From positions 1,736,001-1,800,000 of the forward strand of contig NZ_CP031933.2 in assembly GCF_003606365.2 (NCBI RefSeq): 64,000 bases of DNA, given 5' to 3'. This document shows, in pieces, positions 576-35,676 of the stretch. Position 1 is the stretch's first letter, and the number at the start of each line of letters is the position of its first letter. This stretch comes from Companilactobacillus zhachilii. GTDB lineage: Bacteria > Bacillota > Bacilli > Lactobacillales > Lactobacillaceae. The notes beneath the pieces were generated by a model. It worked only from the letters and a program-made list of their open reading frames with translations, ran no database searches and was not told the origin of the DNA. The translations under genes and the position numbers were made by a program.

Positions 576-744
576 ATGCCGCCTCCAAGAGCAAGCAATT
601 TAGTTCGCTGTGGGGACCGATTCGAGCCGAAAGGCGGTCTCGAATCTCGATTTTGAACTTCGCAAGGTACGCGAATTTCAAAAGTCGTCCCGTGGTGTAC
701 GCCACCTTCACAGAGAGCTAAATTGCTTGCTCTTTCCGGCTAGT
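576..744 (-). repeat. NJ element copy 1 (common outer arm)
   Basis: This copy lies in reverse orientation, with ATGCCGCCTCC at the left end and CCGGCTAG at the right. The outer arms AGAGCAAGCAATTTAG and CTAAATTGCTTGCTCT are a perfect 16 bp match. Inside are the hairpins seen in all copies: one with arms ATTCGAG/CTCGAAT, one built on TTTTGAA/TTCAAAA with CGC..GCG, and a short third hairpin reduced to about GGTG/CACC. At 169 bp it is the shortest full copy because of that shortened hairpin. It forms a head-to-head pair with copy 2. Confidence 0.85.
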
Positions 745-903
745 TTATAATTTTTGAACGAATTGGAGTATTACCGTTTAGTCAGTACTCTTCCATCAAT
801 AATGGCCAGATTAACAAAATATACGGCATGTTTTGAATCCTAAGTACTCAACAATACATTTACCATGTAGCATAATAATTCAACTCAACACATCATAAAA
901 TAT
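745..903. other. Spacer between NJ copies 1 and 2
   Basis: A 159 bp AT-rich stretch between the two facing CTAG ends. I see no supported gene. Two short forward frames of about 25-28 codons are open but have no ribosome site. It shows no clear similarity to the other two pair spacers beyond a shared TCCATCAAT with the 12156-12304 spacer, which could be chance. Confidence 0.5.
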
Positions 904-1081
904 ACTAGCTGGAGGGAATGAGAATGTTTTTCTGCCGTGAAATTGTAGTTAGAGCTTCAGCTCTTACTACAAGGACGTATTTTGAGATTTGCGGTCTGGG
1001 CAAAGCTCAAAATCGAGGTTCGAGACCTTGGCTCGAGCCGGTCCCATGGCAGGAAAACATTCTCATTCCAGCAAGCGGCAT
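904..1081 (+). repeat. NJ element copy 2 (private outer arm)
   Basis: This copy lies in forward orientation, starting CTAGCTGGAGG and ending AAGCGGCAT. Its outer arms GGAATGAGAATGTTTT and AAAACATTCTCATTCC pair perfectly, then continue as CTGCC/GGCAG, but share nothing with the AGAGCAAG arm of copy 1. The inner core is conserved: a hairpin with AGAGC/GCTCT around TTCA, the TTTTGA/TCAAAA hairpin and the GGTTCGAG/CTCGAGCC hairpin. It sits directly before the atpC terminator. Confidence 0.85.
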
Positions 1082-1114
1082 AAAAAAAGAAGCCTAGGTC
1101 TCCCTAGTCTTCTT
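1082..1114 (-). terminator. atp operon terminator
   Basis: A hairpin with arms AGAAG-C-CTAGG and CCTAG-T-CTTCT, followed on the minus strand by a run of seven T. It lies 6 bp past the atpC stop, so it should end the eight-gene atp transcript. Confidence 0.8.
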
Positions 1115-1119
1115 AATTA

Positions 1120-1551
1120 TTATACGTTTCGATGTGAACTTACGTTAATTCTGTTTACAGCTTTACGCAAGGATACCTGAGCACGAGCCAACTCATCAAC
1201 GTTGTGTTTCTCTTCCGCAACTTTGATAGTTTGTTCAGCTCTTTGCTTAGCATACTCTGCACGTCTTAAATCAATGTCTCTAGCTCTTTCGGCACTATTA
1301 GCGACGATTGAAACTAGATCATTGCTAAACTCCAAGAACCCGCCATTTACAGCAATTGAGTCTTCATGGTGAGGTTTGTCCACACGACGGACACGAACTT
1401 CATCAATGACCAATGGGGCAATGATTGGAGCATGGTGAGCCATGACACCAATTTCACCATCAATGGTACTCAACACAACGAGTTTTGCATGATGATCATA
1501 AACAACACCATCGGGAGTAACAATATTGACCGTCATAATATTTTCAGCCAT
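1120..1551 (-). CDS. atpC: ATP synthase epsilon subunit
   Basis: A 143-residue F1 epsilon subunit. It is part of the central stalk, links gamma to the c-ring and can inhibit ATP hydrolysis. The N-terminal beta-sandwich (about residues 1-88) contains MTVNIVTPDGVVYD and GEIGVMAHHAPIIAPL, typical of the family; the C-terminal helical hairpin follows (about 90-138), rich in Ala, Arg and Glu. Length is normal. It is the last gene of the operon, 17 bp after atpD, and is followed at once by the operon terminator. In lactic acid bacteria this complex mainly works as an ATP-driven proton pump for pH homeostasis. Confidence 0.96.
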   Translation of the reverse strand: MAENIMTVNIVTPDGVVYDHHAKLVVLSTIDGEIGVMAHHAPIIAPLVIDEVRVRRVDKPHHEDSIAVNGGFLEFSNDLVSIVANSAERARDIDLRRAEYAKQRAEQTIKVAEEKHNVDELARAQVSLRKAVNRINVSSHRNV

Positions 1552-1568
1552 ATTATCTCCTCCTATCC

Positions 1569-3035
<1,467 letters not shown>

Positions 3036-3040
3036 CTAAA

Positions 3041-3958
3041 CTATTCAAGTGCAGCAGCACCACCGATGATTTCAGTGATTTCTGTAGTAATTTGAGCTTG
3101 ACGAGCACGGTTATAATGCAATGACAAACTTGAAATAAGGTCGTCAGCATTATCAGTCGCACTCTTCATAGCTGTTACAGAAGCAGCATGCTCTGCTGTT
3201 TTTGCATCCATCATTGCTCCTAAAACTAAACACTCAATATATTGAGGCACAATTGCAGATAAAACTGCTTTAGGGTTTGGTTCTGTGATGTATTCAGTAG
3301 CAACTTGTTGTTCTTCAGCAGTAACATCATCAGGTTCTGTCAATGGCAATAACTTATCTGTTGTAAAGTTAGAAACCAATGAATTGACGTGATGATTATG
3401 ACAAATATCAATTTCATCAAACAACTCTGCTTGATACATTTGCAAAATTGTCTTCATGATTGGAGTGATATCTTTAACTGTTGGAATATCTGGTAAACCA
3501 CGGTATTCGTAAGAAACGTCAAAGCCACGTGCTTTAAAGAATTCTGTTCCAGTAGCACCTAAGGAAATAATAGTAAATTTACTCTTGTCGCCATTATATT
3601 TCTTTTGGAAAAGATCCATCATAGCTTTCAAGATATTACTGTTATATCCACCAACAAGACCACGGTCTGATGTAATAACAACATAGGCAGTCTTTTTGAC
3701 TTCACGAACTTTTAGAAGACTGTTCAAACTTAGCGGATCAGTGGAATCATCAGCAATTGACAATTCTTTGAACACATCGGCCGCTGTTAAATGTCTAACA
3801 ATATCTTCAACCTTTTTTGCATACAATTGATAAGCAATAGATTTCTTTTCAATACGAGAGAGTTTAGCACCAGAGACCATTTGCATGGCTCTTGTAATTT
3901 GACCGGTTTTCTTAGTAGAAGAAATTCTTCTTTTAATATCCATAAGGGACTCAGCCAT
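3041..3958 (-). CDS. atpG: ATP synthase gamma subunit
   Basis: A 305-residue rotor subunit of F1. The N-terminal coiled-coil helix begins SLMDIKRRISSTKKTGQITRAM, and the C-terminal helix contains AMKSATDNADDLISSL and the ARQAQITTEITEIIGGA signature of the family. It is slightly longer than the usual 285-290 residues because of insertions in the central domain, as is common in lactobacilli. It sits 17 bp downstream of atpA and 20 bp upstream of atpD. Confidence 0.96.
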   Translation of the reverse strand: MAESLMDIKRRISSTKKTGQITRAMQMVSGAKLSRIEKKSIAYQLYAKKVEDIVRHLTAADVFKELSIADDSTDPLSLNSLLKVREVKKTAYVVITSDRGLVGGYNSNILKAMMDLFQKKYNGDKSKFTIISLGATGTEFFKARGFDVSYEYRGLPDIPTVKDITPIMKTILQMYQAELFDEIDICHNHHVNSLVSNFTTDKLLPLTEPDDVTAEEQQVATEYITEPNPKAVLSAIVPQYIECLVLGAMMDAKTAEHAASVTAMKSATDNADDLISSLSLHYNRARQAQITTEITEIIGGAAALE

Positions 3959-3975
3959 TATTTAAACCTCCTGTA

Positions 3976-5538
<1,563 letters not shown>

Positions 5539-6087
5539 TTAATTATTAACCAATAGCGTCTTCTTAATGTCATTAAATCTCTTAACAACACTACCATCGA
5601 CAACTTGATCTCCTACTCGGATTATAACGCCACCGATGATAGATGGATCAACTATTTTCGTTAAATTTACTTTATTTACTGAAAATCTTTGTTGGATCAC
5701 TGACTCAAGTTTCTTAGCTTGATCTTCGTCTAAGTCAATCGTAGTAGTAACTGTAGCTTCAACAATTGCATTCTTCTCATCATATTTTTCAATGAAAGCA
5801 TCAGCAATTTCCACAATACAGTCCATACGATTATTATCAAAAACTAAACCTAAGAAATCTTGCATTAATTCGCCAAATTGGCTCTTCAAAGTATCCAAAA
5901 CTTTAAGTTTTTCAGTGCGAGAAATAGAACGTCCTGCAAGAGCAAAGCTCAAGCTAGGATTTTCTTCATAGACTTGTTTTAAAGATTTTAAATCTTCAAG
6001 CATTTCTTCTACAGAGTTTTGTTCTGTGGCAACTTCGTAAAGTGCCTTACTATAACGCTTTCCCACTTGAATGTTACTTAGTTTCAT
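5539..6087 (-). CDS. atpH: ATP synthase delta subunit
   Basis: A 182-residue peripheral-stalk subunit joining F1 to the b subunits. The N-terminal domain contains the RYSKALYEVA motif, and the C-terminal region has the GGVIIRVGDQVVDGSV signature of the family. Its start overlaps the end of atpF by 14 bp, which suggests translational coupling. Length is normal. Confidence 0.95.
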   Translation of the reverse strand: MKLSNIQVGKRYSKALYEVATEQNSVEEMLEDLKSLKQVYEENPSLSFALAGRSISRTEKLKVLDTLKSQFGELMQDFLGLVFDNNRMDCIVEIADAFIEKYDEKNAIVEATVTTTIDLDEDQAKKLESVIQQRFSVNKVNLTKIVDPSIIGGVIIRVGDQVVDGSVVKRFNDIKKTLLVNN

Positions 6088-6592
6088 TTACCGTCAACTC
6101 CTTAATGTAAGAGTCGATTAGTGACTTCTGATCGTCTGCATTAAGCTCCTTAGAAATAACTTTAGAAGCAATTTCCAAAGACAAGTTTGCTATGTCATTT
6201 TGTGCGCCTGCCATAGCATCTTCTCTAGCTTTAGCTGCATCAGATTTTGCTCTTTGTCTTAATTCTTCAGCTTCGCTATGAGCATCGGATACGATAGACT
6301 TCTTTTGAGTCTCACCGCTTTCCTTAGCTTTATTAACAATTTCCACTGCTTCAGCACGTGAATTCTTAAGAGCATCTTCACGTTCTTTTGCCAACTTTTC
6401 AGCACGTGTGCGTTCCTGATCCGCATAATCAAGATCACCAGTAATCTTTTCAGATCTGGCATCCATCATCTTTGTTACAGGACCCCAAGCAAAATGCTTC
6501 ACTAACAGTGCTAAAACGATGAAAGAAACAAGAATGAAAAGCATGTCACCCAAAGCTACTTGATTAGCTCCGAGAACTAATAAACCTGCCAA
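6074..6592 (-). CDS. atpF: ATP synthase b subunit
   Basis: A 172-residue membrane-anchored peripheral stalk. One N-terminal membrane helix (about residues 12-30, MLFILVSFIVLALLVKHFAW) is followed by a long charged coiled-coil region rich in Ala, Glu and Lys, ending in the region that binds delta. The gene overlaps atpH and follows atpE after an 84 bp gap. Confidence 0.95.
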   Translation of the reverse strand: MAGLLVLGANQVALGDMLFILVSFIVLALLVKHFAWGPVTKMMDARSEKITGDLDYADQERTRAEKLAKEREDALKNSRAEAVEIVNKAKESGETQKKSIVSDAHSEAEELRQRAKSDAAKAREDAMAGAQNDIANLSLEIASKVISKELNADDQKSLIDSYIKELTVNETK

Positions 6593-6676
6593 TATTCTTC
6601 ACTCCTTCCTTTCTAATAAGTACATAAAACATAAAAAGGCGATTATTTTATATCGCCAAATTTTTGGTTGTATGTA

Positions 6677-6892
<216 letters not shown>

Positions 6893-6912
6893 TTAAAATC
6901 CTCCAATAAATG

Positions 6913-7623
6913 TTATTCTTGTTCCAGTTTACGTGAAATATATACCATTGATAATGTGGTAAATACATACGCTTGGATGGCTCCAATAAATACAGAAAAG
7001 CCTTGCCATACCATCGCTAATGGCATAGCTGCAACAAATGTCACAGCGCCAAGACTCTTCGCAACAGTTCCAATAAGTGCAAGAAGTACTTCACCGGCAA
7101 ATATATTACCGTAAAGACGTAGTGACAATGTTAGGAAGTTGGTAAATTCTTCCAGAAGGTTAATTGGTAGCAAAAACTTTACCGGTCTCGCATAATTGGA
7201 TAAATAACCACCGAATCCAAATTTCTTCACTGCATAGTAGTGAGAAATCAAAAGTGAGACTGTCGCAAGTCCCATTGTGATCAAGGGATTAGACGTTGGT
7301 GACTTAACATATGTGAAACCGCCAACCTTTACTTGGAAGAATAATCCTAATTGGTTAGAGACAAAGATAAATAGGAATAATACAAACGCATAAAGATTGA
7401 ATTGTTTACCTGAACCGTCTGGCATTGCCGATTTTACAATACCGTTTGTAAAATCAATCATCCATTCGAGTACATTCTGTGCTTTGCCTGGTCTCATTGT
7501 GACTTTACGAGATAATGCAAACACCAAAATGAAAACAAGGACTGCAGAGACTAGAACTGACAAGTCATTTGCAACATTGAATCTTAAGCCTAAGAATTCA
7601 ACAAACTTATACTTATCATCCAA
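6913..7623 (-). CDS. atpB: ATP synthase a subunit
   Basis: A 236-residue membrane stator with five to six membrane segments. The fourth main helix carries LSLRLYGNIFAGE, where the Arg is the essential proton-path residue, and the last helix has QAYVFTTLSMVYI. It is the first gene of the operon here: no atpI gene is present upstream, since upp ends only 88 bp before its start. RBS AGGAGGG lies just upstream of the start. Confidence 0.96.
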   Translation of the reverse strand: MDDKYKFVEFLGLRFNVANDLSVLVSAVLVFILVFALSRKVTMRPGKAQNVLEWMIDFTNGIVKSAMPDGSGKQFNLYAFVLFLFIFVSNQLGLFFQVKVGGFTYVKSPTSNPLITMGLATVSLLISHYYAVKKFGFGGYLSNYARPVKFLLPINLLEEFTNFLTLSLRLYGNIFAGEVLLALIGTVAKSLGAVTFVAAMPLAMVWQGFSVFIGAIQAYVFTTLSMVYISRKLEQE

Positions 7624-7670
7624 TAATAACCCTCCTTTCTTCGCTTATTGAAAACAATTGATACCACAAA

Positions 7671-7698
7671 ATAATAACACTAAATTTTATATATTCAA
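7671..7698 (-). promoter_or_regulatory. Possible atp operon promoter
   Basis: On the minus strand, TTGAAT and TATTAT are separated by 16 bp, in the short gap between upp and atpB. It could drive the atp operon independently of the upp transcript. The match is moderate and untested, and no terminator separates upp from atpB, so read-through is also possible. Confidence 0.4.
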
Positions 7699-7710
7699 AC
7701 AATGAAATTG

Positions 7711-8340
7711 TTATTTTGTCCCAAACAATCTGTCACCAGCGTCACCCAAACCAGGGAAAATATAACCACTATCTGTAATCTTATCATCGAGTGAAGCAGC
7801 ATAAATATCAACATCTGGATGAGCTTCTTGAACGGCCTTAACACCTTCTGGAGCGGCAACCAATACGACTAGACGCATGTGTTTTGCACCACGTTTCTTC
7901 AAAGCCTCAATGGCCATATTAGCAGAACCACCAGTAGCAAGCATTGGATCAACGATGAATAATTCACGTTGGTCGATATCGCTAGGGAGTTTTACAAAAT
8001 ATTCATGTGGTTTCAAAGTCTTTTCATCACGGTACATTCCGATATGACCAACTTTAGCAGCAGGAATCAATTCAAGCACACCATCAACCATACCTAGACC
8101 GGCACGCAAGATAGGGATAACAGCTAGTTTTTTACCAGCTAAAACTTTTTGAGTTGATTTACCCATTGGTGTTTCCACAACAACATCTTTTAGTGGCAAG
8201 TCACGTGTAATTTCATAAACCATTAATTCACCAATTTCGTTGGCTACTTCACGGAATACTTTAGTCCCAGTGTGCTTGTTACGAATGATTGTAAGTTTAT
8301 GTTGGATCAATGGGTGATTTAATACTGTAAATTTAGACAT
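7711..8340 (-). CDS. upp: Uracil phosphoribosyltransferase
   Basis: A 209-residue cytosolic enzyme that converts uracil and PRPP to UMP in pyrimidine salvage. The PRPP-binding loop is [11 protein letters not shown] at about residues 130-140, and the uracil-binding C-terminus contains [17 protein letters not shown]. Full length. It lies 11 bp after tsaC in the tdk-prfA-prmC-tsaC-upp run, so two nucleotide salvage genes flank three translation genes. Confidence 0.97.
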
Positions 8341-8351
8341 TTTAAGTCTCC

Positions 8352-9362
8352 TTAGTTTTTATAATGTGTGTTTCCGGCGGATTTATTCAAACGATTGCTG
8401 TATGCAGCACCGTGACCTTCATCTGAGAAGCCTTGAGCTAAAATATATTGAACGTGATCATTATCTAACTGACGCAAACCAGCAAATAATTCTCGTGAAG
8501 CACTGATAACATCTTTACCTAGAGAAAAAGTTTCAATATTATCTGGTACTTCTTTCAAAATTTCATCTGTAGCCATGACTCCCATCGGAACATCCTTAGC
8601 GACGTATTCAGCGATGGCTTGTTTAAAATCATTTACATCATCAACAATGATGACTTGTGCGCTTGGTGCATAGTGCTTGTACTTCATACCTGGTGCCTTA
8701 GGAACTTCATTTGCTGTAACCTTGTGGTGATCGGAGTTGACATTGTCGATTACTTTCAACAAGTCATCTGAATCGATCATTCCGGGACGTAAAACTGTTG
8801 GTATATCGACCGATAAGTCGATTACAGTTGATTCAACGCCTAATTTTGTTGGGCCATCATCCAAAATAGCTGCAATTTTACCATGCAAATCATGATAAAC
8901 ATGCTTAGCTAAAGTTGGACTTGGTTTACCACTCGTATTAGCGGATGGTCCCACAATTGGTTTGCCAAAAGTCTTGATAAGATTCAAAGTAGCCTTATTA
9001 TTGGGCATTCTAAAGGCAGCAGTCGTTAGTCCCCCAGTGACTTCCTTGGAAAGTTTGCCAGGTTGAATTGGCATAATGATTGTCAATGGTCCTGGCCAAA
9101 ATGCCTTCATCAGCTTTTCAGCCAATGGCTTGTAGCTATTGTCAGCATATTCCCAAACCATCTCTGGTCCTGAAACATGGACAATCAAGGGGTTGTCACT
9201 AGGGCGACCCTTAGCTGCATAGACATCTTTGACTACATCAGGTCTTGTTGCGTCAGCTCCTAAGCCATAAACGGTCTCAGTTGGAAAAGCCACTAATTGA
9301 CCTTTAGCAAGAAAATCTGCCGCTTCTTGAATCTGTGTACTCTCTAGTATCTCAGTATCCAA
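8352..9362 (-). CDS. tsaC: L-threonylcarbamoyladenylate synthase (Sua5 type)
   Basis: A 336-residue enzyme making threonylcarbamoyl-AMP for the t6A37 modification of ANN-decoding tRNAs. The N-terminal YrdC domain (about residues 10-205) contains [30 protein letters not shown] and [14 protein letters not shown] linker leads to the C-terminal Sua5 domain (about 225-330). The two-domain length fits the Sua5/YwlC form rather than short TsaC. It lies 2 bp after prmC, in the standard Firmicutes order. Confidence 0.94.
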
Positions 9363-11952: not shown

Positions 11953-11975
11953 CATTAGGTTGAAAGATATTTTAG

Positions 11976-12155
11976 ATGCCGCCTCCAGGAGCAAGAAAAT
12001 TAGGTCGCTGTGGGGACCGGTTGGAGCCAAGGTCTCCAACCTCGACTTTGAACCTCGCAAAATACGCGAGTTTCAAAGTTCGTCCCGTGGTGTAAGTGCT
12101 AAAGCACTAACACCACCTTCACTGCGATCTAATTTTCTTGCTCCTTCCGGCTAAT
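11976..12155 (-). repeat. NJ element copy 3 (common outer arm)
   Basis: This copy lies in reverse orientation, from ATGCCGCCTCC to CCGGCTAA. The outer arms AGGAGCAAGAAAATTAG and CTAATTTTCTTGCTCCT pair over 17 bp. The inner hairpins are GGTTGGAG/CTCCAACC, ACTTTGAA plus CTCGC paired with GCGAG plus TTCAAAGT, and GTGTTAGTGC-type arms around TTTA (read on the element's own strand). It occupies the divergent tdk/murT region and pairs head-to-head with copy 4. Confidence 0.87.
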
Positions 12156-12304
12156 TGGTCCGTTTTTTTGAAATTATAAATAGGCTCTAGTACTTATCTT
12201 AATAAATTCAAAAAATGATATATTCTAAAAAATATTTCTATCCATCAATGATTTTCAGCGAGGCAAATTTCTTATCTAATAATAATTGCTGCATAACTCA
12301 ATAC
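12156..12304. other. Spacer between NJ copies 3 and 4
   Basis: A 149 bp AT-rich stretch. On the minus strand, an 18-codon frame MQQLLLDKKFASLKIIDG is open but lacks a convincing ribosome site, so it is at most a gene remnant. No promoter, RNA or repeat is supported. Confidence 0.4.
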
Positions 12305-12495
12305 CCTAGTCGGAGTAGCTGAGAAAAATAAACCAGCAGTGAAAGTGGCGTTAGTTCGAGTGCCCTTCTCGGACTTACACCACCGGACGTGTTTGGAGAC
12401 TTGCCGAATTTGCAAGGCTTCAAACCGAGAGACGAGACCTTGGCTCGGCTCGATCCGCACTGCTGGTTTATTTTTCTCAGCTCTGGAGACGGCAT
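12305..12495 (+). repeat. NJ element copy 4 (private outer arm)
   Basis: This copy lies in forward orientation, from CTAGTCGGAG to GGAGACGGCAT. The outer arms AGCTGAGAAAAATAAACC and GGTTTATTTTTCTCAGCT are perfectly complementary and unrelated to the AGAGCAAG arm. At 191 bp it is the longest copy, with an enlarged second hairpin (GTTAGTTCGAG paired with CTCGGACTTAC). The TTGGAGAC/CTTC hairpin is more degraded than in other copies. Confidence 0.83.
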
Positions 12496-12583
12496 TTTAC
12501 CCAAACATTAACCATTTTCAAACAAAATAGGCCTTAGGTGTGATAATATTAATTTTAATTAATTTAAATTTGGGGTTTTAGTA

Positions 12584-13968: not shown

Positions 13969-14008
13969 AATGGCTCCAGCAATCCAAAAGCGGATTACTG
14001 GAGCCATT
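13969..14008. terminator. Bidirectional terminator, AGCTCCAG family copy 1
   Basis: A hairpin with arms GGCTCCAGCAATCC and GGATTACTGGAGCC, flanked by A and T runs, between the convergent murT and acetyltransferase genes. Three further close relatives occur at 23375, 47814 and 59540. Confidence 0.85.
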
Positions 14009-14014
14009 TTTGTT

Positions 14015-15742: not shown

Positions 15743-15931
15743 ATGTCGTCTCCAGATTCGGACAGTGGTCACTGACAGTGCGGAACGGCCCGAGTCACGG
15801 TCTCGGACCTCGGTTTAAGCCTTGCAAGTTCGGCAAGTCTTAAACGCGCCCGGTGTTGTAAGAACGACAAAAGCGGTCGTCCTAACAACACTTTCACTGC
15901 CAATAACCACTGTCCGAATCTTCCGACTAGT
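15743..15931 (-). repeat. NJ element copy 5 (private outer arm)
   Basis: This copy lies in reverse orientation, from ATGTCGTCTCC to CCGACTAG. The outer arms AGATTCGGACAGTGGT and ACCACTGTCCGAATCT are a perfect 16 bp private stem, followed by partly paired CTGACAGTG/CACTGCCAA. The inner hairpins are diverged in sequence but still paired: GGTTTAAGC-type and GTTGTAAGAACGAC opposite GTCGTCCTAACAAC. It pairs head-to-head with copy 6. Confidence 0.83.
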
Positions 15932-16076: not shown

Positions 16077-16260
16077 CTAGCCGGAAAGAGTAAGAAATTT
16101 AGGTCGCTGTGAAGGTGGTGTTAGTGCTTTAGCACTTACACCACGGGACGAGTTTTGAAACTCGCGGTCTGTGCGAGGTTCAAAATCGAGATTCGAGACC
16201 GCTCCTCGGCTCGAATCGGTCCCCATAGCGACCAAAATTACTTACTCTTGGAGGCGGCAT
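16077..16260 (+). repeat. NJ element copy 6 (common outer arm)
   Basis: This copy lies in forward orientation, from CTAGCCGGAA to GGAGGCGGCAT. Its outer arm reads AGAGTAAG with partner CTTACTCT: relative to AGAGCAAG/CTTGCTCT both strands have changed together. Inner hairpins: AGTGC/GCACT around TTTA, TTTTGAAACTCGC paired with GCGAGGTTCAAAA, and GATTCGAG/CTCGAATC, with GGGAC/GTCCC enclosing the last two. Confidence 0.87.
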
Positions 16261-23347: not shown

Positions 23348-23374
23348 AAACTACGAAATTCTTGAGCATTAAAA

Positions 23375-23414
23375 AATAGCTCCAGCAGTCCGATTTTGGA
23401 TTGCTGGAGCTATT
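23375..23414. terminator. Terminator, AGCTCCAG family copy 2
   Basis: Hairpin arms AGCTCCAGCAGTCC and GGATTGCTGGAGCT flanked by A and T runs, just after the TetR gene. Relative to copy 1 both strands changed at matched positions. Confidence 0.85.
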
Positions 23415-23628
23415 TACGTTAAAAGAGTAAGGTTCCTACCTAAACCAAATATACTTTTAATTTTATTTCTGGAACGACATATCAAAAAAACGAGCGGTGC
23501 TAGTTGATTTCAGACCGTAGGAATAAAATCACTTTCAAAAATCCATACCCCTTATCCTATAACTTTAGCTATCAGTGACATTATAATATTGAAAGTTATT
23601 CACTATTAATTTAGAAACAAAGAATAAA

Positions 23629-23807
23629 CTAGCCGGAAAGAACAAGAGATTTTGGTCGCTGTGCAGGTGGCGTTAACACTTTAGTGTTTACACCACGGGA
23701 CGACTTTTGAAACTCGCGATTTGTGCGAGGTTCAAAATCGAGACAAAAGACCTCGGCTTTTGTCGGTCCCCATAGCGACCAAAATTTCTTGCTCTTGGAG
23801 GCGGAAT
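23629..23807 (+). repeat. NJ element copy 7 (common outer arm)
   Basis: A single copy in forward orientation, from CTAGCCGGAA to GGAGGCGGAAT, between convergent genes. Outer arm AGAACAAG with partner CTTGCTCT has one mismatch. Inner hairpins keep full pairing with unique sequence: AACAC/GTGTT around TTTA, and GACAAAAG/CTTTTGTC around the conserved ACCTCGG loop. These are clean compensatory changes relative to copies 6 and 8. The 213 bp before it (23416-23628) hold nothing I can identify. Confidence 0.87.
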
Positions 23808-23828
23808 ATTTAACTAGAGAAACGCGTA

Positions 23829-27073: not shown

Positions 27074-27255
27074 CTAACCGGAAAGAGCAAGAAAAATTAG
27101 GTCGCTGTGCAGGTGGCGTTAGAGCTTTAGCTCTTACACCACGGGACGAACTTTGAAACTCGCGGTTTTTGCGAGGTTCAAAGTCGAGGCCTGAGACCTT
27201 GGCTCAGGCCGGTCCCCACAGCGACCTAATTTTTTCTTGCTCTTGGAGGCGGCAT
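27074..27255 (+). repeat. NJ element copy 8 (common outer arm)
   Basis: A forward copy from CTAACCGGAA to GGAGGCGGCAT, and the best preserved fold: outer arms AGAGCAAGAAAAATTAGG paired with CCTAATTTTTTCTTGCTCT, then TCGCTGTG/CACAGCGA. Inside are AGAGC/GCTCT around TTTA, ACTTTGAA-CTCGC with GCGAG-TTCAAAGT, and GGCCTGAG/CTCAGGCC around ACCTTGG. GGGAC/GTCCC closes the inner junction. It lies between two tandem plus-strand genes. Confidence 0.88.
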
Positions 27256-28230: not shown

Positions 28231-28310
28231 TAACCCGTCAAATCACAATCGAAAGCGTTTTTACATTTATAAAAAATGTTATAATTTTCACTAAAGGAAG
28301 GTTATAACTT

Positions 28311-28937
28311 ATGGCAGATATCGAACAACTTTTAGAACAATTACAAGCAATCGCTCAAACCGGCAAACATTACAGCAAAGATGTTTTTGACCGTGAACGC
28401 TACGATCAACTCGAAGAGGTAGCTAAAAAATTGACTGCACAATTAGTAAGTAATGCTTCTCCAAAGAAACTAGATATTTATTTTGACCAAGATACTGGCT
28501 ACGTAACTCCGAAAGTCGATATTCGTGCCGCCATCTTTAAGGATGATAAGATTTTACTCGTTCGTGAAAAAAGTAGTGGTCAATGGTCAATTCCCGGCGG
28601 TTGGGGTGACATTGGTTATTCAGCAGCTGATATTGCCGTTAAAGAAACCTTTGAAGAAGCCGGAATCAAAGTTAAGCCCTTAAAAATGATTTCAATTAAA
28701 GATATGCAAAAAAATCACTATCCCAAAAAGAATCTAAATTATGTTTATAAACTTTTCTTTGAATGTGAGCCAGAAGAAAATGGTATTCATAGTGGCGTCG
28801 AAACATCCGATGTTAAATACTTTACTCCAGATGAAGCTTTAAATTTGGACTTATCATTAGCACGAAATATGCCCGATGATTTCAAACGAGCTTTTGAATG
28901 TCACCATTCAATTAATTGGCAGACTTATTTTGATTAG
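28311..28937 (+). CDS. NUDIX hydrolase with N-terminal helical domain
   Basis: A 208-residue NUDIX protein with an N-terminal domain of about 60 residues (IEQLLEQLQAIAQTGKHYSKDVFDRERY), as in the ADP-ribose pyrophosphatase-like group with a Nudix_N_2 domain. The Nudix box is at about residues 97-120 and ends KETFEEAGI. The metal-binding Glu pair is present, but the first Glu of the box (G-x5-E) is Tyr here and the Arg of REU is Lys. Probable substrates are nucleoside diphosphate derivatives. RBS AAGGAAGG. Confidence 0.87.
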   Translation: MADIEQLLEQLQAIAQTGKHYSKDVFDRERYDQLEEVAKKLTAQLVSNASPKKLDIYFDQDTGYVTPKVDIRAAIFKDDKILLVREKSSGQWSIPGGWGDIGYSAADIAVKETFEEAGIKVKPLKMISIKDMQKNHYPKKNLNYVYKLFFECEPEENGIHSGVETSDVKYFTPDEALNLDLSLARNMPDDFKRAFECHHSINWQTYFD

Positions 28938-28946
28938 AAACTATAT

Positions 28947-29465
28947 CTACAAACGAGACATCTTTTTTAAAAGATGTCTTTTTGCTCTAGTATTAGTGAT
29001 AATAAAAATTTGTGCATCATCCTTTTTATATTTTTCAATTAACCTAAGTATTTTGTCATCATCATAGACAAAAATCGTTCTCAAAAAATCAAGATAGTCG
29101 GAGTCTAAATGTTCACTAAACTGTTCTGGCATCTCGGCTCTACTACTTTTATCAATTCTCCACAATAGAGAACGTTTTAAAACTCTAAATAATGACTTTA
29201 TTCTACTTACTTTGAGCCAAATAATAATATCGGCTTGAGGTATTCTTAAATTCATCGTTCTAGCATAATTACCGTCAATAATCCAGTTCACTTGATTCAT
29301 GAATAGTGTCTGCTGGCGGTCAAACCAAATCTTAGCATTATCAGAATAGTCGGTCGTATGCCACAAACTATCAAGGTGCATTAATGGATAGCCAGTAATT
29401 CTTGCAATTTTTTTCGATAAAGTCGACTTACCTGTCCCAGAATTTCCAACAATTATAATATGCAT
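28947..29465 (-). CDS. P-loop AAA/adenylate-kinase-like protein (topology-modulation type)
   Basis: A 172-residue P-loop protein starting at ATG 29465 (MHIIIVGNSGTGKSTLSKKIA). The Walker A GNSGTGKST is at residues 8-16, followed by the MHLDSLWH segment, DGNYARTMN and IIWLKVSRIK, matching small kinases annotated as DNA topology modulation protein FlaR. The real substrate of this family is unknown, perhaps a nucleotide or nucleoside. Its end overlaps a terminator shared with the NUDIX gene. Confidence 0.8.
   Translation of the reverse strand: MHIIIVGNSGTGKSTLSKKIARITGYPLMHLDSLWHTTDYSDNAKIWFDRQQTLFMNQVNWIIDGNYARTMNLRIPQADIIIWLKVSRIKSLFRVLKRSLLWRIDKSSRAEMPEQFSEHLDSDYLDFLRTIFVYDDDKILRLIEKYKKDDAQIFIITNTRAKRHLLKKMSRL
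28956..28983. terminator. Bidirectional terminator
   Basis: Hairpin AGACATCTTTT/AAAAGATGTCT with T run, between the convergent NUDIX and P-loop kinase genes. It overlaps the end of the latter. Confidence 0.7.
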
Positions 29466-29565
29466 CGTTATTACTACCCCCAAACGCTTTTATCATTACA
29501 ATAGCATACTCAAATATAGTAAAAGTACAATTCTACGTTTGGTCTAACAAAATATTCAAAATTCA

Positions 29566-29605
29566 CAAAAAAACACGAAATCTGTAAAAGGATTTCGTGT
29601 TTTTC
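29566..29605. terminator. Oleate hydratase terminator
   Basis: Hairpin AAACACGAAATC/GATTTCGTGTTT with A and T runs on both sides. It lies 6 bp past the oleate hydratase stop. Confidence 0.85.
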
Positions 29606-29611
29606 TATTTT

Positions 29612-31384
29612 CTATAGCAAATGTGCATCTTTCAATAATTCTTCAATATATGTGCCATGGACTTTCTCCATAACCTTCTTTTCAATCATTCTTTCCTTAA
29701 ATGGCAACTTGATATCTTCAATCTTTTGCTTACCATCCAAGTAGTAAATTGCTCTCAACAATGTCCGTACATCAAAGGCTGAGCCAAATACTTCGGGAAC
29801 CGCACGATCAACATTTAGCAAAGTATAGACAGCTTCCATAGCTGTTCTGACTGAGTATTCGGTTGTAAAGACGGTGTCACGTTCTGTTTCAGCAAAGTTA
29901 CCGATAAAGGCCAAGTTCTTTGAACCTTCTGGAACTACTAATGGACGATCGCCCACTTTTCTTGGCATAAAGTATGAAGTGATGTAAGGCATGTGTGCTG
30001 GAATTGTGCTGGCATGATTTTCAGCAATATCCTTGATTTTGTCTGTAGGAACACCAATATGGTATAGCCACTCTTCACAAAGTTCATCACCGGTGCACTC
30101 AGTAATCTTCTTATTGACGAAGTTACCTGGTTTATCTGAGAATAGTCCATAAACCCAAACGACTAACTCATTATCCTTTTGTCTCTTGAAGTGTTTTTGA
30201 CGACTAATTGAGTAACCGTACAACCAGTTAGAATCCTTAATACTTACAGGACCACTTGTGACAATTGAACCACTGTGTGGATCCTTTTGACTGATTTTTT
30301 CAATATATGGTGTTACTTCATCGTCTGTCAAAGTAATTGTTCCTGAAATTGTCCAGTTAGCTTCAGGAATATTCTTGCAGAAGACGTCTGGATTACCAAA
30401 GGCTTTATCTTGTTTAGCCAAGTTTTCCCAAAGTGACCAACTGCTACCTAATTCATGCTCAGTTGGTGCTGGGTGAGTCTTGTCACCATAAGTTGTACTT
30501 TCAGTAATTGAACCATTTGTAACAAAGACAAGATCATTTTCGGTCAAAGCAATGGTGCTGTCCTTGCCATCAGTTGTCATGTCAATTTCTGTGGCAACTT
30601 TTGAACCATTTGAAGTATCAACTTTTATATTGTTGACGTGTGTATTATATGTAAATTGAACGCCCTTATCTTCCAAGAACTTGATCATTGGTTGAATCAA
30701 TGATTCGTATTGATTGTATTTTGTAAATCTCAACGATGATAGATTTGAAAGTGAGTCGATATGATGACAGAAACGCATCAAGTAACGTCTCATCTCCATA
30801 GCACTGGCCCATGGTTCAAAGGCAAACATTGTTGACCAATAGAGCCAGAAGTTAGAATTCAAGAAGTCTTCTGAGAATACTTCATTGATCTTCTTGTCAC
30901 CCAAATCTTTTTCAGGTGTCATAACCAAATCAATCAATTCTTTAACAGCTTTAGGTGTCAAAGTTAATTGACCTTCAGTTGGCAATTCCTTACCTTGATC
31001 TTGGATAACTCTACCATGTGAGAAACTTGGATCTTTCTTGTTTAACCAATAAAATTCATCCAAAACTGATGCATCTGGATCTTCCAATGAAGGAATTGAT
31101 CTGAACAAATCCCAAAGCGTTTCGAAATGAGGTTCCATCTCTCTACCACCACGGATAATATAGCCCTTTTGCTCGTTCCAAATACCGTCCATACTACCAC
31201 CGGGTAGAGCGAGTTCTTCGAGAACATGAATCTTGTCGCCTTTCATTTGACCATCACGTACAAGAAATGAAGCTGCAGCCAATCCAGCTAAACCAGATCC
31301 AACAATGTAGGCCGACTTATCGTCAACACCTTCTGGCTTCAAAGGTCTTGCAAATGCTTCATAATTACCATTACTTCTATACAT
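29612..31384 (-). CDS. ohyA: Oleate hydratase
   Basis: A 590-residue FAD enzyme (formerly myosin-cross-reactive antigen) that hydrates oleic and linoleic acid to 10-hydroxy fatty acids at the membrane, detoxifying unsaturated fatty acids. The FAD motif [13 protein letters not shown] is at about residues 30-42. The [17 protein letters not shown] segment carries the active-site acid, and [17 protein letters not shown] and [13 protein letters not shown] are family signatures. I start at ATG 31384 with AGAGGTGG upstream; an in-frame GTG lies three codons earlier. A cre-like site lies in its promoter region. Confidence 0.95.
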
Positions 31385-31418
31385 AAGAACCACCTCTTGA
31401 TTAAATTAGCTTTCGTTT

Positions 31419-31432
31419 TGTAACTGCTTACA
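31419..31432. promoter_or_regulatory. Possible catabolite response element (cre)
   Basis: TGTAACTGCTTACA matches the CcpA consensus TGWNANCGNTNWCA at all fixed positions but one. It lies 35 bp upstream of the oleate hydratase start, so CcpA could repress that gene in the presence of preferred sugars. Confidence 0.35.
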
Positions 31433-31531
31433 CGTAAAATATAGTTCTATTGTTTAGGATATGCAATAGTAAAAGTGTGATTTCTTTGTGAATTTTAGAT
31501 TTGTTTTTAACTACATTTTGAGACAAAATAT

Positions 31532-31578
31532 AAAAAGAGTGGTATTTGAGACAATCTCAAATATCACTCTCATTTTTT
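31532..31578 (-). terminator. Aldo/keto reductase terminator
   Basis: Hairpin GAGTG-TATTTGAGA/TCTCAAATA-CACTC with T and A runs, overlapping the last codon of the reductase gene. It may also limit read-through from the other side. Confidence 0.75.
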
Positions 31579-32401
31579 AAAACTCTTCATAAACCGCTGG
31601 ATCTTGGTTTTTGGTGCGACCATCTGGCTTAGTCAATGCGTTAATTCTTTCCATATCAGAATTTGAAATTTCAAAATCAAATATGTTCATATTTTCGCGT
31701 TGTCTCATTGGAGAACTTGATTTTGGAATGGGAATCGTATCTAATTGATGTTCCCATCTTAAAATAATCTGACCAACTGATTTATGGTACTTGTTTGCAA
31801 GTTCAACTAACAACTTATCTTCTAGAACAGAACTTGCTCTTCCCAATGGACTCCAATCCATCGTTACAATACCGTTATCCTTGTCAAATTTACGCATCTC
31901 TTCTTGGTTAAAGTATGGATGCAACTCAATTTGATTAACAGCTGGTAAAATACCAGTTTCTTTTTTCAACTTTTCTAAGTGTTCTGGTAAAAAGTTGCAG
32001 ACACCAATCGATTTTACTAAACCAAATTTTTGTGCATCGATCAAAGCTTGCCAAGCTTCAACATACATGCCGCGTTTAGGATTAGGCCAATGCAAAAGGT
32101 ACAAATCAAAATAATCTAGATTTGTCCGGTAAAGTGATTCTTGCAAGGCGGCAATAGCATCATCATATGCGTAATAACGTCCTGGTAGTTTGGAAGTAAC
32201 CGTAAGTTTATCACGATCAATGCCACTTTCAGCAATGGCTCGACCAACTGCTCCTTCATTTTCATAATTATAGGCTGTATCAATCATTTTGTAGCCATTA
32301 TTTATTGCTGAAACAATACTCTGAATACCCTTACGACCATTCAATTTATATGTTCCAAACCCAAAGTTGGGAATTTGTTGACCGTCATTTAATTTATACA
32401 T
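31577..32401 (-). CDS. Aldo/keto reductase
   Basis: A 274-residue NADPH-dependent carbonyl reductase (TIM barrel), similar in length to 2,5-diketo-D-gluconate reductases. The catalytic tetrad is visible: Asp and Tyr in MIDTAYNYENEGAVG, Lys in VTSKLPG and His in LYLLHWPNP. The cofactor-binding IPIPKSSSPMRQREN segment is near the C-terminus. The start at 32401 (MYKLNDGQQIP) is preceded by GAGGAGGG; the ATG six codons earlier lacks an RBS. The substrate is unknown. Confidence 0.93.
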   Translation of the reverse strand: MYKLNDGQQIPNFGFGTYKLNGRKGIQSIVSAINNGYKMIDTAYNYENEGAVGRAIAESGIDRDKLTVTSKLPGRYYAYDDAIAALQESLYRTNLDYFDLYLLHWPNPKRGMYVEAWQALIDAQKFGLVKSIGVCNFLPEHLEKLKKETGILPAVNQIELHPYFNQEEMRKFDKDNGIVTMDWSPLGRASSVLEDKLLVELANKYHKSVGQIILRWEHQLDTIPIPKSSSPMRQRENMNIFDFEISNSDMERINALTKPDGRTKNQDPAVYEEF

Positions 32402-32480
32402 AAATATATCCCTCCTCAATAAACATTATTACCATACAACAGTTTGTACGAGCAAACAATTATCTAATTTAGGGCAAAGA

Positions 32481-32514
32481 AAAAGTCCTACATCAATCCG
32501 TGATGTAGGACTTT
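32481..32514. terminator. Terminator hairpin upstream of aldo/keto reductase
   Basis: Hairpin AAAGTCCTACATCA/TGATGTAGGACTTT, with an A run on the minus-strand exit side (AAAGAAAAAG), positioned after the serine hydrolase gene at 32642. The 32515-32641 gap holds a small palindrome CAGGTAGGCTACCTG of no clear use. Confidence 0.65.
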
Positions 32515-32641
32515 AGGCCACTTTACAGTAAATCTTTGGAATGTGCAAAGCGGTCATTTTTAAATCACAGGTAGGCTACCTGCACAACTAATCATACAGT
32601 TTTTTAAACCAAATAGCTAGCTTTTCTTTTTTGACCCTTGT

Positions 32642-33718
32642 CTATTCATCCTCTATCATCCCGTATATTTGTTTGACAACCGGCTTAGCGTCAGCAGCAA
32701 TCCGTGAATAATTCTCCAACAAGATAACTGCATCTTTACCATTATTCGAAATATGTACGACACCTTGGAAGCCATATCCCCAACCATTAGCAAAATTATC
32801 ATTCTTTCCGTGATACATACCGCCGCCATAAGTGCTGATGCTGCCGCGTTTAAATAAGATTTTGCGTGATTTCTTACTCAACATCTTTCCACGCATAATA
32901 TATTTTTCAACTTTGTATAAATCCCTAGCACTCATATAAACTTGTCCAGTTCCTAATTCATCGAATTCAAAGAACTTCCTCGTATAAAAGGCATTTTTAT
33001 AATCCAAGCGTGCTGACAACGGATCAATGTTATTATATCCAGCCGCTTTATCAATTTTAGGATTTTCATCATAGGCAAAAATCGTATGTTTCAAATGCAA
33101 TTTCTTAATATAAGCTTTCGTAAACAGTTCTTGGTAAGACTTACCAGTTACTTGCTCCAAAATACCACACAATAAATTGAAGTTAACTGGTTGATAATTC
33201 CACTTTTTATATGATAATTCCGAAAAATGCACATTATGGATATCAGCATCAATAATTCCTGAATCTGGCAAAATTTCACTGGGACCAACTTCACTCAAGA
33301 CTAATCCCGACGTCATATCAAGCATCTGCCTGATTGTGATTTTTTGACTGCCAGGAATAGCTGGATAAAATTTACTCAGCTTATCTGATAATTTCAAATG
33401 TTTCTTTTGGACTTGTTTCATCACCAAAGCCGCTGTCAAATTCTTTTGCACTGAATCAATTTCATAAGCAGTATTTTTGTCATTGCTAAGACCGTTAGCA
33501 TAGTTTGAATAGCCACGACTAGTCTCATAAACCGTTTTGCCATTCTTGATAACGAGCAATGTCCCCGAAATACCCTTTTGGTTAAGTACACTGTCAATGT
33601 TTTGATCCAATTGACTACCTACAGTTGGGTCTACGGTATCGTCTGCTGAAGCTGTAACGGGCATTGTTCCCAAAATTGCAGCCAAGAGCATTAAAATTAG
33701 TAGAAAGATTTTCTTCAT
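32642..33718 (-). CDS. Secreted serine hydrolase, beta-lactamase/D-Ala carboxypeptidase fold
   Basis: A 358-residue exported protein. An N-terminal signal peptide (MKKIFLLILMLLAAILGTMPVTASA) with an AxA cleavage site is followed by a class C beta-lactamase-type domain. The nucleophile motif is SVQK (in YEIDSVQKNLTAALV) and the Tyr motif is YQPVNFNLL, with the N of YxN offset by the family's usual variation. It probably acts on peptidoglycan or D-amino-acid esters outside the cell. It is distinct from the cytosolic paralogue at 14668. Confidence 0.85.
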   Translation of the reverse strand: MKKIFLLILMLLAAILGTMPVTASADDTVDPTVGSQLDQNIDSVLNQKGISGTLLVIKNGKTVYETSRGYSNYANGLSNDKNTAYEIDSVQKNLTAALVMKQVQKKHLKLSDKLSKFYPAIPGSQKITIRQMLDMTSGLVLSEVGPSEILPDSGIIDADIHNVHFSELSYKKWNYQPVNFNLLCGILEQVTGKSYQELFTKAYIKKLHLKHTIFAYDENPKIDKAAGYNNIDPLSARLDYKNAFYTRKFFEFDELGTGQVYMSARDLYKVEKYIMRGKMLSKKSRKILFKRGSISTYGGGMYHGKNDNFANGWGYGFQGVVHISNNGKDAVILLENYSRIAADAKPVVKQIYGMIEDE

Positions 33719-33909
33719 AATATATTCACCTATGAAACCTACAAATAAGTGACCTTCCTCATTTATTAATTATAAATTAATTTCCAAAAAAATTATAATA
33801 ATACGCATAGTGACAGTCGCTTTTTAACTATGATTTTGCATCATCCTATTTTTAGCTCCCTTTCAAACGATATGGTAAAATATAGCCATCAAGAGAAGAG
33901 GAGATTTTA

Positions 33910-34458
33910 ATGAATACAATAATTATAATTGTTGTCATCGTAGTGCTAATCGGTGCATATGCTGGCATGTACAACAGTCTTGTAAAATACCGCAACCGCG
34001 CCCGTGAATTTAGTTCACAAATCGATGTTCAATTAAAACGTCGGACTGATTTAATTCCTAATTTGGTTGAAACCGTTAAGGGTTATGCTACCCACGAAAA
34101 GGAAACCTTAGCCCACGTTGTGGAATTGAGAAACAGCGTTACTAGTGCTAATTCTCTCCAAGATAAAGTTGATGCTGATAATGAATTGACTGGTGCTTTA
34201 CGTCAAATTTTTGCATTAGCTGAAAACTATCCTGACCTTAAAGCTAACCAAGAATTCTCTCAATTAATGGAAGAACTTTCAAACACTGAAAATAAAGTTT
34301 CATACGCACGACAAGCTTACAACAGTCAAGTACAGGCTTACGATACCGCTATCCAAACGTTCCCTCGTAACATCATTGCTGGAATTCATGGCTTCAAGGA
34401 AATGAATTTCTTGCAAATCCCTGATGTTGACAAAGAAGCACCTAAGGTTAAGTTTTAA
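33910..34458 (+). CDS. lemA: LemA family protein
   Basis: A 182-residue membrane-anchored helical protein. The N-terminal hydrophobic segment (residues 2-20) is followed by the conserved YNSLVKYRNRAREFSSQIDVQLKRRTDLIPNLVETVKGYA region and helical bundle. Function is unknown, but LemA is typically adjacent to the htpX protease gene, as here (12 bp gap), which supports a joint role in membrane protein quality control. RBS GAGGAG. Confidence 0.93.
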   Translation: MNTIIIIVVIVVLIGAYAGMYNSLVKYRNRAREFSSQIDVQLKRRTDLIPNLVETVKGYATHEKETLAHVVELRNSVTSANSLQDKVDADNELTGALRQIFALAENYPDLKANQEFSQLMEELSNTENKVSYARQAYNSQVQAYDTAIQTFPRNIIAGIHGFKEMNFLQIPDVDKEAPKVKF

Positions 34459-34470
34459 TCGAGGTAACTT

Positions 34471-35379
34471 ATGATTTACGAGCAAATTGATCGTAATAAA
34501 CGTAAAACCTACTTGATATTTTTCATTTTCTTTTTGATACTAGCAGCTATCGGTAGTTTCCTAGGACTTTATTTTTTTGACAATCTCTATACAGGAATCG
34601 TAATTGCCTTGATTATTGCGATTGTTTACACACTAATTACTTATTTTCAGTCTACTAGTATCGTAATGCAAATGAACGGTGCAAGAAAGCTAAATTCAGC
34701 GAAAGATGCACCAGATCTTTGGCATATTATTGAAGACCTTTCCATGGTTGCCGATATCCCTTTACCAGATATCTATATTATTGACGATCCTAGTCCCAAT
34801 GCCTTTGCAACCGGACGAGATCCTCAACATTCAGCTGTGGCTGTAACAAGTGGCTTATATAAAATGATGGACCGTGAAGAGCTTGAAGGCGTATTAGCCC
34901 ACGAAATCTCTCACGTAAGAAATTACGACATTCGAGTCTCAACAATTTCAGTTGCTTTATCATCAGCCATTATTTTAATCTGTTCAATTATCGGTAACGC
35001 CTATCGTTGGTGGATTCCGATGCGTGATGATGACCGTAATAATAATAATTCTGGCGTCATTAGATTAGTCCTGTGGGTCGTTGGTTTAATTTTCGCAATT
35101 ATTGGACCATTGATCGCCAGCTTAGTTCAAATGGCAATTTCTAGAAATCGTGAATACTTGGCAGATGTTTCTGGAGCAGAATTAACCAGAAATCCGCAAG
35201 GATTAATTAATGCCTTAGAAAAACTCGAACAAAGCACCAAACCAATGAAACGAGTCGACGATGCCAGTGCTGCCTTGTATATTGATGATCCAACTAAGAA
35301 AAAACATTTTTCTGGGTTATTCGACACTCACCCACCACTGGATAAAAGAATTGAAGCATTGAAAAAGACATTTGAATAA
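34471..35379 (+). CDS. htpX: Membrane zinc metalloprotease HtpX
   Basis: A 302-residue M48 family membrane protease. Two N-terminal membrane segments (about 15-35 and 38-58) precede the zinc motif HEISH (in GVLAHEISHVRNYDIRVS), with two more hydrophobic segments following it and the third zinc ligand Glu in NREYLADVSGAEL. It degrades misfolded membrane proteins. It is co-transcribed with lemA and followed by a strong terminator. Confidence 0.95.
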   Translation: MIYEQIDRNKRKTYLIFFIFFLILAAIGSFLGLYFFDNLYTGIVIALIIAIVYTLITYFQSTSIVMQMNGARKLNSAKDAPDLWHIIEDLSMVADIPLPDIYIIDDPSPNAFATGRDPQHSAVAVTSGLYKMMDREELEGVLAHEISHVRNYDIRVSTISVALSSAIILICSIIGNAYRWWIPMRDDDRNNNNSGVIRLVLWVVGLIFAIIGPLIASLVQMAISRNREYLADVSGAELTRNPQGLINALEKLEQSTKPMKRVDDASAALYIDDPTKKKHFSGLFDTHPPLDKRIEALKKTFE

Positions 35380-35410
35380 AAAAGAAGCTGAAAAAGTCAG
35401 CTTCTTTTTT
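35378..35410 (+). terminator. lemA-htpX terminator
   Basis: Hairpin AAAAAGAAGCTG/CAGCTTCTTTTT with loop AAAAAGT and T7, starting at the htpX stop. Confidence 0.88.
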
Positions 35411-35491
35411 TCAGCCCATTTTTTAAAATAGGCAGTTTTTAACTGTTTACAATTTGTCTATTAATACCAATCCACTGCAGCAGACAAATAA

Positions 35492-35676
35492 CTTAGCTTC
35501 TGGGTGTGCGTGCTAGAGTCCGCAGTGGCAGTGGTGTTAGGACGGTGGTTTTCCGTTCTTACAGCACAGGGCGTATTTTGAAATTCGCGTTCTTTGCGAA
35601 GTTCAAAATCGAGGGACGAGACCTTGGCTCGGCCCGGTCCTCACAGCAGACTCTAGCACGCACACCCAGAAGCGGC
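35492..35676 (+). repeat. NJ element copy 9 (private outer arm)
   Basis: A forward copy. The outer arms TTCTGGGTGTGCGTGCTAGA and TCTAGCACGCACACCCAGAA are perfectly complementary over 20 bp, GC-rich, and unlike any other copy. The inner hairpins are retained: TTAGGACGG paired with CCGTTCTTA, TTTTGAA/TTCAAAA, and GGGACGAG/CTCGGCCC around ACCTTGG. The right end stops at AAGCGGC and lacks the usual CAT, merging into C5. Confidence 0.85.

What the first reader, a model, noticed from the sequence alone, without database searches (positions are those of the whole stretch)
576..35676. Nine-copy dispersed element with two nested three-way junctions and compensatory base changes
Seen directly: copies at 576, 904, 11976, 12305, 15743, 16077, 23629, 27074 and 35492, each 169-191 bp. 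In the forward reading every copy gives outer stem P1, hairpin P2, helix GGGAC/GTCCC, then inside it hairpins P3 (TTTGAA-CTCGC type) and P4 (around ACCTTGG). Stem sequences differ while pairing holds: P2 is AGTGC/GCACT, AACAC/GTGTT or AGAGC/GCTCT; P4 is GATTCGAG, GACAAAAG, GGCCTGAG or GGTTGGAG, each with its exact complement. Inference: the fold is the selected or self-correcting feature, either as RNA, as single-stranded DNA for a transposition enzyme, or through template switching that copies one arm onto the other. I know no name for this family.
Basis: partly seen in the sequence, partly recalled or inferred. Interest (0 to 1): 0.93.

Follow-up and report, generated by a model that had tools for sequence, protein, structure and literature searches.

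The report
Self-folding repeats of lactobacilli
Hundreds of short, gene-free inserts scattered between the genes of a lactobacillus carry a 185-letter folding module whose paired strands change letters together, which makes an unusual test case for how DNA repeats keep a shape while losing their sequence.

Summary
The nine copies and their fold are real. The host is a Companilactobacillus; C. nantensis is its nearest named relative here. The module ('arm') has at least 150 strong copies in the genome, roughly 600 by extrapolation from 304 kb. Covariation is far above both controls (40 of 67 pairs changed on both sides; 258 double-changed cells against 63 in shuffles) and the fold recurs in Levilactobacillus. 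No Rfam family matches. The arm is not the whole element: it lies just inside the end of short gene-free inserts, single-armed units (Y type about 340 bp, ~20-bp terminal inverted repeats, short target duplication) and two-armed units of about 545-590 bp whose arms point outward (32 of 33 close neighbours). The two-armed insert at 11958-12502 is absent in 20 of 20 syntenic loci of other species, present in C. nantensis. So these look like MITE-like mobile elements; no parent transposase was found, though few families were searched. Four arms shared in place with C. nantensis differ by 52 letters in the P1 strands yet hold only 14 unpaired nucleotides, which supports a selected or self-correcting fold; one other shared arm has lost its fold. 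DNA or RNA is not settled. New variant of a known kind.

The parts
576..743 (-). arm (P2 tip lost); left arm of a head-to-head pair with 905-1081
744..904 (.). spacer of the first pair; left out of the blastn alignment with the same site in G005 and G029, though the arms align
905..1081 (+). arm, divergent subfamily; right arm of the pair
11958..12502 (.). two-armed insert of 545 bp between divergent thymidine kinase and MurT genes; absent in 20 of 20 syntenic loci of other species, present in C. nantensis
11976..12154 (-). left arm of that insert
12306..12495 (+). right arm, divergent (beta) subfamily
15743..15930 (-). arm, beta subfamily; left arm of a pair
16077..16260 (+). arm, typical subfamily; right arm of the pair
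23490..23827 (+). single-armed Y-type unit, 338 bp: left terminal repeat ACGAGCGGTGCTAGTTGATTT, tail, arm, right terminal repeat ATTTAACTAGAGAAACGCGT; no clear target duplication at this copy
23629..23807 (+). arm of the Y-type unit
27074..27255 (+). arm, highest-scoring copy (165.1 bits), single; a very different but folded arm lies at the same site in G005 and G009, none in G029
35492..35676 (+). arm, divergent, single

Best explanation
The copies are the subterminal folding module ('arm') of a group of short, gene-free transposable units (MITE-like) that amplified in Companilactobacillus and related Lactobacillaceae. A unit carries one or two arms; each arm lies with its 3' foot (GGCGGCAT) towards a unit end and points outward. 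Units sit between genes and must be moved in trans by an enzyme not found here. Shown: presence or absence as whole units, terminal repeats and short target duplication in one subfamily, fixed arm polarity, and a fold kept while its stem letters turn over, also in place. Inferred: that the arm is kept because its hairpin form in DNA is read during mobilisation or replication, with changed bases re-matched by selection, by copying one strand of the stem from the other, or by conversion between copies.
For: Whole-unit presence or absence: 11958-12502 absent in 20 of 20 syntenic loci, junctions in G029 and G009; also L081 532-1118 absent in G009, a 251-bp single insert L081 6396-6646 absent in G005, G029 and G009, and L088 18196-18761 absent in G005, though G029 and G009 hold arms there, so that may be a loss. 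Y-type units: terminal repeats on both sides; 33 sites of the left repeat with up to 3 mismatches in the genome, 0 in the control; direct repeats at the ends of the 15 units whose two ends were recognised exceed re-paired ends (z 5.5 for 5 bases, 4.6 for 8, but 2.1 for 9 and none for 10-12; e.g. ATTGTAATT in L084, ATTCGATT in L209). Polarity: of 33 neighbours closer than 700 bp in the stretches of G000, G005, G009 and G029, 32 are -/+; 10 of 13 in Levilactobacillus. Fold; 67 of 67 own arms found by the model keep at least 15 P1 pairs and 66 show exactly three hairpins; 47 of 49 in relatives for each. In place: four arms at sites shared with C. nantensis differ by 28 and 24 letters in the two P1 strands but hold 14 unpaired nucleotides in both copies together; fourfold sites nearby differ by 21%.
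Against: No parent element: 21 of the 33 left-repeat sites were opened with flanks (L208-L227); none of their 43 reading frames of 90 aa or more is a transposase by Pfam. Only four transposase families were searched in the genome: Y1_Tnp and Transposase_mut none, ISL3 one copy without close matches to the repeats, TnpB two good copies; others were not searched. Two-armed units show no target duplication above chance (31 pairs, p 0.2). No blastn match of one Companilactobacillus and one L. brevis copy in 72,556 plasmid and 50,697 phage records. In the 304 kb own sample the only matches below 100.5 bits at E 0.01 are reverse strands of known arms: few half-decayed arms, which a dead MITE would leave, though the model prefers folded copies and arm-deleted units exist. 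Terminal repeats differ between X- and Y-type units, so one enzyme for all is not implied.
Confidence: 0.6

Rival explanations
1. A structured RNA with a host function (cis-regulatory leader, 3' end stabiliser or small RNA) that happens to be in high copy; selection on the RNA keeps the fold.
For: Very strong covariation, fold intact in nearly all model-found copies and kept in place in most; G-U exceeds A-C in orientation A (56 against 20 cells), as expected for RNA read in that sense.
Against: The strand bias shrinks to 33 against 19 cells (20 against 8 positions, p 0.036) on pairs predicted from both strands, and on the pairs of the other strand's prediction it turns to 33 against 51. No gene orientation stands out: singles +- 9, ++ 7, -+ 7, -- 5 in element orientation. 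At the variable tips of P2 and P4 G-U is rare: 18 of 533 cells, Watson-Crick 502. Whole units are absent in sister species.
Confidence: 0.17
2. REPIN-like doublets: the inverted pair is the replicating unit and is moved by a REP-associated tyrosine (Y1) transposase acting on folded single strands.
For: Inverted doublets with a variable spacer, intergenic, hundreds of copies, whole doublet present or absent; the REPIN paper PMC3116915 (passages) describes the same layout and compensatory changes in the hairpin.
Against: No Y1_Tnp match in the genome; arms are about 185 nt, not 20-40 nt; singles are not more diverged than doublets (mean identity 0.77 against 0.738, permutation p 0.11), contrary to the REPIN prediction; Y-type singles have their own terminal repeats and target duplication.
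Confidence: 0.1
3. The fold is kept mainly by mutation mechanics and not by selection: template switching within the hairpin, or gene conversion between copies, re-matches the two strands of each stem.
For: Double changes far exceed one-sided ones at the tips, with G-U rare; 29 of 32 P4 tip variants (116 arms, relatives included) connect by single-base steps of the 5' strand, against 17.3 in column shuffles; the four orthologous arms changed in both strands; P2 and P4 variants are only weakly linked (52 combinations among 67 arms; mutual information 2.19 against 2.05 shuffled, p 0.026).
Against: Selection against mispaired intermediates predicts the same patterns; some unpaired letters (P2 loop, ACC of the P4 loop) are conserved too, although unpaired columns as a whole vary as much as stems. 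Deletion of whole hairpins occurs (L209, L211, L212) and one shared arm has lost its fold (L070 4344).
Confidence: 0.13

Closest known systems
[quoted passage not shown]
   Same: Short, gene-free, intergenic; terminal inverted repeats and target duplication in the Y type; clean empty sites
   Different: No parent element found; one or two long covarying three-hairpin arms beside the ends; stems vary while pairing holds
REPINs / REP doublets (PMC3116915 and PMC3733652, passages)
   Same: Inverted doublets with variable spacer, hundreds of intergenic copies, hairpins with compensatory changes
   Different: Arm about 185 nt with two three-way junctions, no Y1 transposase match, singles as conserved as doublets
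bcr1 of the Bacillus cereus group (size and fold from passages of PMC2267715; the rest recalled)
   Same: Roughly 150-bp dispersed Firmicutes repeat with a predicted common fold and reported mobile features
   Different: Not compared by sequence here; outward paired arms at unit ends are not among the bcr1 features I recall
Foldback transposons (recalled)
   Same: Long structured inverted ends
   Different: Here each arm folds by itself; 11 of 18 own pairs join arms of different clusters

Membership tests
MITE | short, non-coding, dispersed, high copy | tested here: met
   67 arms in 304 kb; inserts of 251-587 bp; Y units mostly about 340-350 bp; no transposase gene at the opened sites
MITE | terminal inverted repeats | tested here: met
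   Y type about 20 bp, X type; not defined for two-armed units
MITE | target site duplication | tested here: inconclusive
   Y units: above re-paired ends for 5-8 bases (15 units), not for 10-12; two-armed units: not above chance (31 pairs)
MITE | empty sites in relatives | tested here: met
MITE | parent autonomous element with the same ends | tested here: inconclusive
   none at 21 of 33 left-repeat sites opened; four transposase families searched
REPIN | two repeats in inverted orientation as unit | tested here: met
   32 of 33 close neighbours -/+
REPIN | Y1 (RAYT) transposase in the genome | tested here: not met
   PF01797: 0 matches; 5 of 14 control genomes ring
REPIN | singlets more diverged than doublets | tested here: not met
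REPIN | 20-40-nt palindromes with a GTAG or CGTC tag | tested here: not met
   arm about 185 nt with two junctions; tag not searched as such
Rfam RNA family | match at gathering score | tested here: not met
   none over the arms; on the 27074 copy only three sub-threshold matches, E 0.39-3

The most novel reading that the evidence does not exclude
The arm is a self-correcting DNA hairpin: stem letters mutate at or above the rate of synonymous sites, but each change is copied onto the opposite strand of the same stem in place, so hundreds of copies keep one shape without keeping one sequence, and this shape is what the mobilising machinery reads.
Probability: 0.2. Interest if true: 0.86.

Novelty: new variant of a known kind. 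Interest (0 to 1): 0.66.

Why it matters
By extrapolation about 4% of this genome (600 x 185 bp of 2.71 Mb) is one folding module that no Rfam family covers, in a genus known (recalled) from fermented food. Because stems drift while pairing stays, and because the same insert can be compared in sister species, the element lets one ask directly whether a repeat keeps its shape by selection, by conversion between copies or by intra-hairpin copying. Its unit layout (arm, polarity, unit ends) also gives a handle for finding the enzyme that moves it.

Tried and rejected
Rejected: (1) known Rfam RNA. (2) IS200/IS605 or TnpB origin: no Y1 transposase match; one of two good TnpB genes lies between arms in L080, the other (L169) has none near, so probably chance. 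(3) IS256: no match; ISL3: one copy, whose surroundings hold only weak partial matches to the repeats. (4) Plasmid or phage cargo: no blastn match. (5) Strand of action from G-U against A-C: 56 to 20 fell to 33 to 19 on pairs predicted from both strands. (6) 'Broken' P1 pairs between orthologs seem mostly alignment error, since the same copies fold well one by one; the counts were 733 same, 162 double, 59 one-sided, 88 broken in one copy, 14 broken in both, 44 gap. (7) Two-armed units as strict heterodimers: 8 alpha-beta, 7 alpha-alpha, 3 alpha with others, 0 beta-beta of 18; I judge this not beyond chance, without a formal test. (8) Arms facing gene 3' ends being better kept: not significant.

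Limits: the 304 kb own sample was partly chosen in dense regions, so 600 copies is rough; one search scored 150 of 1565 candidates and all 150 matched. Arms were found with a model built from folded copies, so decayed copies are under-counted. Of 23 loci one is filled (L089), 20 are empty (two of them metagenome bins; the anchor match is weak in L109), and two (L110, L111) were not syntenic. Among those 23 loci only four (L089, L090, L091, L093) hold a match at E 0.001, and 9 of 20 Levilactobacillus loci at E 0.01 (not L164, a second L. brevis). One search compared 19 of the 20 arm pairs: 366 letter differences in the P1 strands, 111 unpaired nucleotides in both copies together; the pair left out, 16077 with L070 4344, includes an arm with only 6 P1 pairs. 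The four arms quoted in the summary lie at sites whose arms align by blastn and are among the more similar ones; at the shared pair 15743/16077 one arm kept and one lost its fold. Target duplications allowed the unit ends to shift by up to 3 bases; one of its 15 units (L208 plus strand, 166 bp) is probably spurious and was kept. The fourfold figure is 21% near L070 but 38% near L071. Searches for prior reports (listings only) showed none; only open-licence papers are held.
Full report
WHAT WAS CHECKED. The nine copies exist as described. I read them in one orientation, A, from CTAGCCGGA to GGCGGCAT. Folding of the 27074 copy gives the two nested three-way junctions as RNA on either strand and as DNA, far below shuffles. 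On a MAFFT alignment of 37 copies that was not fitted to the structure, 98.3% of cells pair and 40 of 67 pairs show double changes; 258 double-changed cells against 62.9 in shuffles. On 52 copies, 22 of them from Levilactobacillus, aligned to the model and therefore leaning towards it, 50 of 55 pairs have double changes and the covariation score is 0.556 against 0.186 shuffled and at most 0.109 slid.

HOST AND SPREAD. The window lies in a 2.71 Mb one-contig genome. The MurT protein (Pfam) finds Companilactobacillus species as nearest named relatives, C. nantensis best at 97%; contig lengths identify G005 as C. nantensis and G009 as C. huachuanensis. In the own genome all 150 scored candidates match at E 2.5e-28 or better; 67 arms in 304 kb suggest about 600. 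Of 60 genomes, 30 match at E 0.001: the own one, 26 of 35 of the same genus, and 3 of 24 others. Of 295 genomes of the order 13 match at E 0.0001, in 6 of 74 genera. Of 57 loci of other genera around murT, 9 hold matches, all labelled Levilactobacillus (9 of 20 with that label), one L. brevis locus included and one not.

THE UNIT. Neighbouring arms closer than 400 bp are -/+ in 22 of 22 cases, closer than 700 bp in 32 of 33 with the stretches added later: they point away from each other. In Levilactobacillus it is 10 of 13. At 11976/12305 the whole stretch 11958-12502, both arms and the spacer, is missing in G029 and G009 and in 20 of 20 syntenic loci of other species, where the distance from an anchor in the thymidine kinase gene to the murT start is 105-111 bp against 648 in the window and 659 in C. 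nantensis. Other inserts are absent as wholes too. Singles have more room on the CTAG side in 24 of 28 cases (p 0.0002). In the Y type a tail of about 150 bp ends in a repeat ACKCGTGGTGCTAGTTGATTT, whose inverse ATTTAACTAGCACCACGCGT directly follows GGCAT at the other end. Such units are mostly about 340-350 bp and flanked by short direct repeats. X-type units have other ends. Units that lost their arm by deletion also occur (L209, L211, L212). None of the 43 reading frames of 90 aa or more around 21 left-repeat sites is a transposase by Pfam, and the four families searched in the whole genome gave no candidate.

UPKEEP OF THE FOLD. Each of 67 own arms folds with at least 15 P1 pairs, 66 with exactly three hairpins; in relatives 47 of 49 each. 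The most variable columns include stems (107-110 with 130-133 in P4, 30-32 with 48-50 in P2); GAGACC and the closing letters of P4 hardly vary, while the P3 loop does. At the tips 502 of 533 cells are Watson-Crick and 18 are G-U. 29 of 32 P4 tips form one network of single steps. Arms at the same site in different species have 60-91% identity (20 arm pairs), for C. nantensis 76% on average against 72% for arms at unrelated sites. For four arms (576, 904, 11976, 12305) compared with C. nantensis the P1 strands differ by 28 and 24 letters, while both copies together hold 14 unpaired nucleotides; fourfold sites in nearby genes differ by 21%. Over all 19 arm pairs compared there are 366 differences and 111 unpaired nucleotides. 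Either mispaired forms are removed quickly or one strand is copied from the other or from another locus. Against this: L070 4344, at the site of 16077, has lost its fold, and spacer and stems at 11976/12305 differ between the two species, so conversion or re-insertion at the same spot cannot be excluded.

READING. The best account is a MITE-like group whose subterminal arm must fold. DNA-level use is my preference, not a result: gene orientation is ignored, the strand test is undecided, G-U is rare at the tips, and polarity is tied to unit ends and not to genes. Arms stand a median 27 bp behind stop codons and 111 bp before start codons, by a simple reading-frame caller, which fits insertion tolerated outside promoters.

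KNOWN KINDS. REPINs share the doublet layout (PMC3116915, passages), but the Y1 transposase and the decay of singles were tested and not met. MITE membership is met for size, copy number, empty sites and, in the Y type, ends; the duplication is clear only for 5-8 bases in the Y type, and the parent is missing. No report of this family was seen in six literature searches (listings), which cover open-licence papers only.

Noticed in passing
L088:14022-14195: Another dispersed repeat of about 170 bp with many copies in G005 and G029, not matched by the arm model.
   Followed up: no
window 13969-14011 and 23372-23414: Inverted copies of a CTCCAGCAATCC hairpin, terminator-like, 88% complementary; a similar CAATCC motif stands left of some X-type units.
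   Followed up: no
L080:1771-2940: TnpB (Cas12f1-like) gene between two outward arms.
   Followed up: partly
L209 and L212: Y-type units whose arm hairpin was cut out by deletion, in L209 apparently between GGTC repeats.
   Followed up: partly
own genome, 150 best arms: Mild strand bias by genome half (31 plus / 48 minus against 44 / 27, Fisher p 0.009); the half boundary is only near the terminus.
   Followed up: partly
window 57089-57319: T-box leader above the gathering score, minus strand.
   Followed up: no
window 38530-38576 and 39525-39571: 47-bp direct repeat, 72% identical, in neighbouring minus-strand reading frames.
   Followed up: no
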